The position numbers and the translations under genes were made by a program. The notes beneath the pieces are model-generated. The model saw only the letters and a list, made by a program, of their open reading frames with translations. It was not told the DNA's origin and searched no databases. From Erythrobacter sp. (GTDB lineage: Bacteria > Pseudomonadota > Alphaproteobacteria > Sphingomonadales > Sphingomonadaceae), in assembly GCA_025698865.1 (NCBI GenBank), contig JAILWQ010000001.1, positions 372,001-436,000 of the forward strand: a stretch of DNA of 64,000 nucleotides. Direction: 5' to 3'. Positions 52,235 through 52,979 of this stretch are shown piece by piece (positions within the stretch are counted from its first letter, which is position 1; every line of letters begins with the position of its first letter).

Positions 52235-52269
52235 AGGCGCCAAGGGGGCGGCGGTCCGGCCGCGCCCCC

Positions 52270-52491
52270 TCAGTCGGCGATCAGGCCGATCGCCAGGTAG
52301 ATCAGGATGAAGCTGCCGAGGCCCAGCAGGGTGCCGAGCACGAAAGCGATCCTGACGAGGGTCGTGTCGACCCCGAAGTAATTGCCGATCCCGGCGCACA
52401 CGCCCATCAGCTTGCCGTTGCGCTTGTCGAGCCGGAACTTCTGACGTGGGCTCACGGCTCGATCCTCCTCGCGGAACTTGAGATCACTCAT
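52270..52491 (-). CDS. Small PspC-domain membrane protein
   Basis: 73 residues from ATG 52491. FRLDKRNGKLMGVCAGIGNYFGVDTTLVRIAFVLGTLLGLGSFILIYLAIGLI is a full PspC domain: the amphipathic loop around VCAGIG, and the helix that follows. It is the short form (PspC of E. coli has about 119 residues). The ATG overlaps the stop of the upstream mini-protein as ATGA. PspC domains sense membrane stress and signal to PspA. Third gene of a likely sigma-54 operon. Confidence 0.92.
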   Translation of the reverse strand: MSDLKFREEDRAVSPRQKFRLDKRNGKLMGVCAGIGNYFGVDTTLVRIAFVLGTLLGLGSFILIYLAIGLIAD

Positions 52492-52610
52492 GCCAGCATC
52501 CCGTTCGGCGTAGCGGGCAGGATCGCGGTGGCGAAGAAGATCGCCGAGAGAACCAGCGAGAAACCGGCGGCGAGAGCCTTGCTGGCGTTGAAGTCGGACA
52601 TTTCGTTCAT
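52488..52610 (-). CDS. Mini membrane protein A, paralog of the upstream mini protein
   Basis: 40 residues from ATG 52610 (another start at 52601). The N-terminal MNEMSDFNASK is polar; the rest is one helix, ALAAGFSLVLSAIFFATAI, followed by LPATPNGMLA. It ends in the overlap with pspC (GCATGA), so it is co-translated. Aligned without gaps to the mini protein upstream (52650-52763) it is identical at 15 of 29 positions, and both end PA(T/S)P-G-LA. It is too short for ordinary gene calling. Position between a sigma-54-like site and pspC suggests a PspB-like or sensor-partner job. No family is known to me. Confidence 0.78.
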   Translation of the reverse strand: MNEMSDFNASKALAAGFSLVLSAIFFATAILPATPNGMLA

Positions 52611-52649
52611 TCCTTTTGGTATGAGTGCAGGTGGGTGGGTGCTGCCGGA

Positions 52650-52763
52650 TCAGGCGAGAAAGCCGGCCGGACTGGCGGGGACGATCGCGGCGGCGAATAC
52701 GATCACCGAGACGGCGAAAGCAGCGATGGCGGCGAAGGCGTTGTTGGCATTTTCGTAGGTCAT
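52650..52763 (-). CDS. Mini membrane protein B
   Basis: 37 residues from ATG 52763, with GGAAGGAAAA upstream. MTYENANNAFAAIAAFAVSV continues IVFAAAIVPASPAGFLA. It has one helix (about residues 9-28) and a short polar tail that stays close to the same motif as mini protein A. First gene of the presumed operon, 21 to 40 bases after a GC hairpin (52784-52800) in the leader. Unannotated family as far as I can tell. Confidence 0.75.
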   Translation of the reverse strand: MTYENANNAFAAIAAFAVSVIVFAAAIVPASPAGFLA

Positions 52764-52783
52764 TTCGTGTTTTCCTTCCTGAA

Positions 52784-52800
52784 CCCCGGCCATTCCGGGG
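52784..52800 (-). promoter_or_regulatory. Leader hairpin of the mini-protein/pspC operon
   Basis: CCCCGG (52784-52789) and CCGGGG (52795-52800) pair around a 5-base loop between the expected transcription start (about 52803) and the first gene. May stabilise the mRNA's 5' end. Confidence 0.5.
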
Positions 52801-52813
52801 ATGCACACAGCTT

Positions 52814-52829
52814 TGCAACCAGTGTGCCA
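52814..52829 (-). promoter_or_regulatory. Sigma-54 (-24/-12) promoter of the mini-protein/pspC operon
   Basis: Minus strand TGGCACACTGGTTGCA fits the RpoN consensus TGGCAC-N5-TTGCA, with the invariant GG and GC exactly ten bases apart. The start would be near 52803. The next gene downstream is mini protein B. Psp operons in enterobacteria are RpoN-dependent through PspF, which supports the call. Upstream, an inverted repeat AATGGC-N8-GCCATT (52839-52858) and GCACGCGTGC (52875-52884) could bind an activator. Confidence 0.72.
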
Positions 52830-52979
52830 AACCCGAAAAATGGCGCTTTCGAGCCATTCCTTCATGTATGACAGGCACGCGTGCTGTTCACCTTTCAGAA
52901 ATGTTGGGAATTTTCCCCAAAGTTTGGATTTGGCGCTTTGGAGTGGCAGGATCACCTTGGGCAGCTTAGGCGCACTCCC

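What the first reader, a model, noticed from the sequence alone, without database searches (positions are those of the whole stretch)
52270..52884. Compact phage-shock-like operon: sigma-54 promoter, two paralogous mini membrane proteins, then a PspC-domain gene
Three very short genes on the minus strand (37, 40 and 73 residues) are linked by a 40-base gap and an ATGA overlap. The first two are a tandem duplicate pair (15 of 29 aligned residues identical, both one-helix and ending in PA(T/S)P-G-LA). A TGGCAC-N5-TTGCA site with GG-N10-GC spacing sits 51 bases before the first start, and two symmetrical sequences further upstream could bind an enhancer-binding protein. Psp operons are RpoN-dependent in known cases, so the pieces fit. 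The mini proteins would be missed by normal gene callers and I know no family for them.
Basis: partly seen in the sequence, partly recalled or inferred. Interest (0 to 1): 0.8.

Follow-up and report, generated by a model that had tools for sequence, protein, structure and literature searches.

The report
Second phage-shock operon of tiny proteins
A Qipengyuania-type bacterium and many of its relatives carry a second, separate membrane-stress (phage-shock) operon made of one to three tiny membrane proteins and a shortened PspC, sitting behind an enhancer of the kind used by the phage-shock activator PspF; the tiny proteins match no family in the two libraries searched.

Summary
Mini1 (37 aa), mini2 (37 or 40 aa) and a 73-aa PspC lie behind an excellent sigma-54 promoter. 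Mini1 has matches in 59 of 60 genus genomes. Of 80 loci chosen by PspC homology alone 76 have a short pspC, and 72 of these have mini + sigma-54 site + one enhancer element, starting exactly 98 nt before the -24 box in 49 of 72. A matrix of that element, CCAA-N3-TTGG-N9-CCAA, made only from mini loci, also finds sites in 26 of 26 classical pspF-pspA gaps of the family and at E. coli pspA and pspG. So this is most likely an unlinked second operon of the PspF regulon, like E. coli pspG in control but made of different genes. A PspF ortholog is in 58 of 60 genus genomes. PspF, PspA and RimP, pspF's neighbour in relatives, were not found in the window's own assembly; deletion or missing sequence was not decided. 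The minis match no Pfam or NCBIfam family, show in-frame purifying selection, and in six genomes also form a pair without pspC. Their function is inferred. New variant of a known kind.

The parts
52650..52763 (-). mini1: 37-aa protein with one predicted membrane helix (MTYENANNAFAAIAAFAVSVIVFAAAIVPASPAGFLA)
   Evidence: matches in 59 of 60 same-genus genomes, in-frame purifying selection, KD maximum 2.75 at residues 10-28
52488..52610 (-). mini2: paralogue of mini1; 37 aa from the likelier ATG at 52601 (40 aa from 52610); its stop overlaps the pspC start (ATGA)
52270..52491 (-). short pspC, 73 aa, ends directly after the last hydrophobic segment (PF04024)
   Evidence: PF04024 E 1.7e-17; below the TIGR02978 PspC cut-off; 73 of 80 homologues have exactly 44 residues from GVC to the end
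52815..52829 (-). sigma-54 promoter -24/-12, TGGCACACTGGTTGC
   Evidence: strict TGGCAY-N6-TGC in 73 of 76 short-pspC loci
52903..52927 (-). PspF-type enhancer (UAS) CCAAACTTTGGGGAAAATTCCCAAC, starting 98 nt before the -24 element
52839..52858 (-). second conserved symmetrical element, here AATGGCTCGAAAGCGCCATT, consensus about AATGGCGGAATTCCGCCATT; role unknown
   Evidence: a perfect inverted repeat with arms of 6 or more was found in 19 of 73 loci (3% of shuffles)
52244..52269 (-). G+C-rich inverted repeat GGGGGCG...CGCCCCC right after the pspC stop, possible terminator
   Evidence: read; function inferred

Best explanation
This is an unlinked second operon of the PspF regulon, so far seen in one alphaproteobacterial family (Qipengyuania, Erythrobacter, Novosphingobium and relatives). 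Under inner-membrane stress PspF, freed from PspA, binds the enhancer at 52903-52927, meets sigma-54 polymerase at 52815-52829 and turns on mini1-mini2-pspC; mini2 and pspC are probably translationally coupled. The products are inner-membrane proteins: one to three tiny single-helix proteins with almost no soluble part, and a PspC reduced to its N-terminal region and membrane segment. They most likely act as effectors in the membrane, the minis packing beside the membrane part of the short PspC or of other Psp proteins, rather than as signalling parts, since this PspC lacks the C-terminal soluble part. Shown by comparison: gene order, coding selection, promoter, and the shared enhancer. Inferred: binding by PspF, induction by stress, coupling, protein partners and effect.
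For: Enhancer matrix from 99 mini loci finds a match in 26 of 26 classical pspF-pspA gaps, above all 60 mononucleotide shuffles in each, and at E. coli pspA (16.0) and pspG (12.2), 0 of 200 shuffles as high in either. In a sample taken by PspC homology, 72 of 76 short-pspC loci have mini + sigma-54 + enhancer, 49 of the 72 at exactly 98 nt; the enhancer was in 0 of 61 downstream control stretches. PspF ortholog in 58 of 60 genus genomes. The 14 family genomes without PspC also lack PspA, mini matches and the composite promoter. In-frame median dN/dS 0.50 and 0.39 against 0.96 to 2.03 in shifted frames.
Against: The window's own assembly shows no PspF or PspA and only this one PspC, so in this strain the activator is not accounted for. 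The composite pattern misses 145 of 249 family genomes, partly because it is strict. Some of the 80 loci come from species also used for the matrix, so one search is independent in selection but not fully in species. The 14 genomes without PspC fall into eight genera and some are incomplete. The leader ORFs of classical operons are only doubtfully homologous to the minis (hhalign probability 73). No expression or interaction data.
Confidence: 0.8

Rival explanations
1. The minis are leader peptides whose translation only couples the ribosome to pspC; their own product does nothing.
For: The last mini ends in ATGA, as in an overlap with the pspC start, in 42 of 59 listed loci (hand count); small ORFs also stand first in classical pspA operons.
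Against: The A-I-V-P-A-S-P stretch is conserved within the genus and dN/dS is below 1 in frame only; copies come in tandem, up to three; six of 60 genus genomes have an extra mini pair with its own enhancer and promoter and no pspC in the 4.5-5 kb fetched; in the two read in full the next gene is a convergent ruvC.
Confidence: 0.12
2. The operon is driven by another enhancer-binding protein of the genome, not by PspF.
For: The own genome shows five candidates, by my reading NtrC, NtrX, a flagellar one and two response regulators; PspF was not found.
Against: The enhancer matches classical pspA promoters and E. coli pspA/pspG. With a narrow pattern and up to two mismatches it was found in the own genome only here and at one place on C29 that was not inspected. 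Three of the five have a changed or missing GAFTGA motif (C35: GAFPGA; C1 and the NtrX-like one: none).
Confidence: 0.08
3. The minis are membrane-active peptides of the TisB/YohP sort that lower the membrane potential, with the short PspC limiting the damage.
For: Size and single helix; YohP (27 aa) dissipates the potential and induces PspA/PspC in E. coli (passages of PMC12719787).
Against: The minis have almost no charge (mini1 one E; mini2 one D and one K), whereas the same paper speaks of membrane segments often flanked by positive charges (the passage seen does not show whether of toxins or of small membrane proteins); six genomes have a mini pair without pspC beside it.
Confidence: 0.15

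Closest known systems
E. coli pspG (unlinked PspF-regulon gene)
   Same: Unlinked from pspF-pspABC, sigma-54 dependent, one PspF enhancer (PMC3709507 passages: pspA two enhancers, pspG one); small inner-membrane product; its upstream region is matched by the matrix from this family.
   Different: Different genes: single-helix minis of about 36-60 aa plus a short PspC, instead of one PspG with two predicted helices (PMC2763126 passages); no Pfam or NCBIfam match for the minis.
Classical pspF-pspABC locus of the same family
   Same: Sigma-54 promoter and the same half-sites; PspC domain; a small ORF often stands first, before pspA.
   Different: No pspF, pspA or pspB here; PspC lacks the C-terminal part (73 against 125 aa in G031); in the classical gaps the best matrix site is often on the other strand.
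Tandem short and long pspC (L155, L180, L333, L337, L347-L349)
   Same: A PspC of about 62-65 aa (lengths seen for L333, L337, L347-L349) that ends at about the same place.
   Different: There a short pspC directly precedes a long pspC, and in L333, L337, L347-L349 no sigma-54 site or enhancer was found upstream; possibly the ancestral form (inference).

Membership tests
PspF regulon | sigma-54 -24/-12 promoter | tested here: met
   TGGCACACTGGTTGC at 52829-52815; strict site in 73 of 76 short-pspC loci
PspF regulon | PspF-type enhancer upstream | tested here: met
   matrix match in 26 of 26 classical pspF-pspA gaps and at E. coli pspA and pspG
PspF regulon | pspF present in the genome | tested here: inconclusive
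   58 of 60 genus genomes yes; own assembly no, but RimP, beside pspF in G054 and G022, is missing too; the stretches read hold neither
PspF regulon | PspF binding and stress induction | not testable with these tools
   needs bench work
PspC | PspC domain PF04024 | tested here: met
   63.4 bits, cut-off 25
PspC | full PspC (TIGR02978 cut-off 104 bits) | tested here: not met
   60.8 bits; the match covers profile positions 2-59 of 121
PspB/PspD/PspG and other named small proteins (for the minis) | match to a Pfam or NCBIfam model | tested here: not met
   none convincing among 30 minis; best E 0.035, in one member

The most novel reading that the evidence does not exclude
The minis found a new family of stress-induced intramembrane microproteins, present as one to three tandem copies in much of a large alphaproteobacterial family, that act as Psp effectors by packing against the membrane part of a PspC without its signalling tail: a branch of the phage-shock response in which effector and sensor PspC have been split onto two unlinked operons under one activator.
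Probability: 0.45. Interest if true: 0.75.

Novelty: new variant of a known kind. Interest (0 to 1): 0.62.

Why it matters
It adds a second operon and an undescribed microprotein family to a well-studied envelope-stress response, in a family for which I found no report of it (searches; listings were capped). It suggests that the PspF enhancer is recognisable from E. coli to these bacteria, and gives a natural short PspC with which the roles of the PspC membrane segment and tail can be separated.

Tried and rejected
Chance frames: rejected by conservation and by in-frame dN/dS. The mini criterion of the script alone has a base rate of 29 of 303 control windows, so it counts only together with position, conservation and promoter. 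GCACGCGTGC as a second enhancer: not conserved by eye. An operon spread beyond the family: the 14 non-family hits of the composite pattern in 285 genomes have no mini or PspC match, negative enhancer scores, and 13 of 14 lie within open frames of 150 aa or more; the control pattern hit 3 of 289. The pattern is strict and outside the family nothing else was tried but the PspC scan, which keeps only its best 80. Homology of minis with the leader ORFs of classical pspA operons: weak, left open. Is the missing pspF in the own genome an assembly gap? The small contigs in full, 6-8 kb at each end of the large ones and 400 kb around the window hold no rimP, nusA, pspF or pspA ortholog (at most 776 kb of 3.16 Mb, so most was not read): undecided. 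Minis without a nearby short PspC in L088, L092, L095, L112, L113, L123, L125, L127, and G059, the one genus genome without a mini match, were not worked out.

Rows dropped: the enhancer matrix used 99 distinct upstream stretches from 106 rows, after 12 loci (classical-type or odd) were left out by hand and rows with a promoter score under 24 or too little upstream sequence were skipped. Of the 50 pspA loci fetched (L133-L182), 11 gave no match to the pspA query and were not examined. In one search, 16 of 80 loci were not parsed by the first script; one search repeats all 80. In one of the 26 classical gaps (L178) the promoter was probably misassigned, so its distance (243) is not meaningful.

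Full report
What is there. On the minus strand between recF and a short-chain dehydrogenase gene (both on the plus strand; Pfam hits, recF by its SMC_N domain and my reading) lie mini1 (52763-52650), mini2 (52610-52488, likelier start 52601) and a 73-aa PspC (52491-52270), read directly. The promoter TGGCACACTGGTTGC (52829-52815) has the sigma-54 spacing; rpoN is in the genome. PspC is certain (PF04024, 63.4 bits) but short: it stays far under the full-length model TIGR02978 (60.8 of 104 bits).

The minis are real genes. Mini1 finds matches in 59 of 60 genomes of its genus, mostly two adjacent ones. A profile of 30 minis finds them in 67 of 249 family genomes, 31 of 96 genera, one to three in a row ahead of a short pspC in most loci parsed. 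In 42 genus loci the median dN/dS is 0.50 (mini1) and 0.39 (mini2), like pspC itself (0.39); read in the two other frames it is 0.96 to 2.03. No Pfam or NCBIfam model fits. Hydropathy predicts one helix in each mini, with almost no charge.

The upstream region is strongly conserved. Aligned on the -24 element, relatives share CCAA-N3-TTGG-N9-CCAA, starting about 98 nt before it, and a second symmetrical element near AATGGCGGAATTCCGCCATT directly upstream of it. As a composite pattern enhancer and promoter occur in 104 of 249 family genomes, with 0 hits of the reversed control. Of the 30 such hits that became loci, I count 25 before a mini and short pspC, two before classical pspA, one before a PspC without mini, and two unrelated (L197, L203) (for L216 the PspC was seen in the same place as L117). 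The other listed hits were not all read. In the class outside the family 14 of 285 genomes hit, none near a mini or PspC match and all with negative enhancer scores; the control pattern hit 3 of 289.

A sample chosen by PspC homology only. The genome-contig scan with short PspC gave the best 80 named loci: Qipengyuania, Erythrobacter, Novosphingobium, Altererythrobacter, Tsuneonella, Blastomonas and others. That the window's genus is Qipengyuania is inferred: contigs of its genus mates equal named contigs in length (G001:C2 and L275, 934,402 bases; G042:C1 and L282, 1,937,448), though one is filed as Erythrobacter vulgaris (G057:C8 and L295, 82,667). 76 of the 80 are short; 75 of these have a mini-like ORF upstream, 73 a strict sigma-54 site, 72 all three features; in 49 of the 72 the enhancer starts exactly 98 nt upstream, in the rest at 75-97. 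The four misses: one just under threshold (L292, 10.2 against 12), one at a contig end (L293), two in other settings (L333, L351). 73 of 80 have exactly 44 residues from GVC to the end. Some species also served to build the matrix.

The enhancer is of the PspF kind. PspA is in 234 of 249 family genomes. Of the 39 fetched loci in which the script found pspA, 38 show divergent pspF, then pspA, pspB, pspC; L154 does not. The matrix built only from mini loci finds its best site in each of 26 pspF-pspA gaps above all 60 mononucleotide shuffles, in 25 of 26 at 78-113 nt before the -24 element and often on the other strand. It also picks a site at E. coli K-12 pspA and at the unlinked pspG, above all 200 shuffles. 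E. coli PspF is reported to bind two enhancers at pspA and one at pspG (passages of PMC3709507), and PspG is described as an effector (passages of PMC2763126); whether my sites are those footprinted ones was not checked. The 14 family genomes without PspC are the PspA-less ones apart from the window's own, and they have neither mini matches nor the composite site; they fall into eight genera and some are incomplete, so they are not 14 independent cases. By hand count, 180 of 249 genomes have two or more PspC matches and 55 have one.

What it most likely does. It is a second PspF-regulon operon, like pspG in position and control, different in content. By inference: the short PspC has lost the soluble tail of full PspC, so it is more likely an effector than a sensor, and the minis, which are little more than a helix, can only act within the membrane. 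Six of 60 genus genomes have a second mini pair with the same kind of enhancer and promoter but no pspC nearby (L041-L046), facing a convergent ruvC in the two read in full. This argues that the minis have a function of their own.

The window's own strain. Neither PspF nor PspA was found in its assembly, nor RimP, although rimP adjoins pspF in G054, nearest by mini1 identity (95%), and in G022. I read the small contigs, the ends of the large ones and 400 kb around the window and found no ortholog of these genes; most of the genome was not read. Loss and missing sequence remain open. The five enhancer-binding proteins it does show read as NtrC, NtrX, a flagellar one and two response regulators (names recalled), 30-42% identical to PspF where aligned.

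Literature. The 2024 survey of PSP systems (PMC11237479) was seen as term counts and passages: it describes pspFABC variants, including PspB duplicates, and its main text holds neither 'sphingomon' nor 'PspG'; its supplements were not seen. The Novosphingobium comparison (PMC5443232, one passage) and the Qipengyuania comparison (PMC9241875, two passages) mention phage-shock genes only in passing. Searches for PspC with Alphaproteobacteria, Sphingomonas, Novosphingobium and Erythrobacter, and for Sphingomonadales with phage shock protein, listed no report of this operon; only 15 of 30 and 10 of 90 papers were listed, and subscription papers are mostly not in that library.

Noticed in passing
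L041-L046 (minis at 2287-2565 in L041): Six of 60 genus genomes carry an extra mini pair with its own enhancer and sigma-54 site and no pspC nearby; in L041 and L042 it faces a convergent ruvC.
   Followed up: partly
window 52839-52858; consensus in L275-L354: A second conserved symmetrical element, about AATGGCGGAATTCCGCCATT, lies directly upstream of the -24 box in mini loci and in several classical pspA promoters; I know no binder for it.
   Followed up: partly
L163:3956-5777: Behind pspC in the classical locus of G031 stand six small ORFs (90-116 aa) with similar PspB-like heptad ends, a tandem array; PspB duplicates are mentioned in the 2024 survey.
   Followed up: no
L163-L170, L172, L143, L151 between promoter and pspA: Classical pspA operons of the family often begin with an extra small gene: a helix protein of about 50 aa, or in L172 a protein with a TonB_C domain.
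   Followed up: partly
L107, L124, L130 (genus g78): A second psp locus ordered mini, pspA with an extended N terminus, pspC, PspB-like (read in L107 and L124; L130 by profile hits only), with a less perfect sigma-54 site.
   Followed up: partly
G178 C1:29-121, C1:2095849-2095941, C2:27-119, C2:978948-979040: Mini copies sit at both ends of both contigs of this two-contig assembly, as if a repeated mini locus broke the assembly or marks the replicon ends.
   Followed up: no
L155, L180, L333, L337, L347-L349: A short pspC directly followed by a long pspC, in L155 and L180 within a classical pspFAB locus; possible origin of the short form.
   Followed up: partly
L215 (G185): Composite enhancer and promoter before a 78-aa PspC-like protein without any mini.
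   Followed up: no
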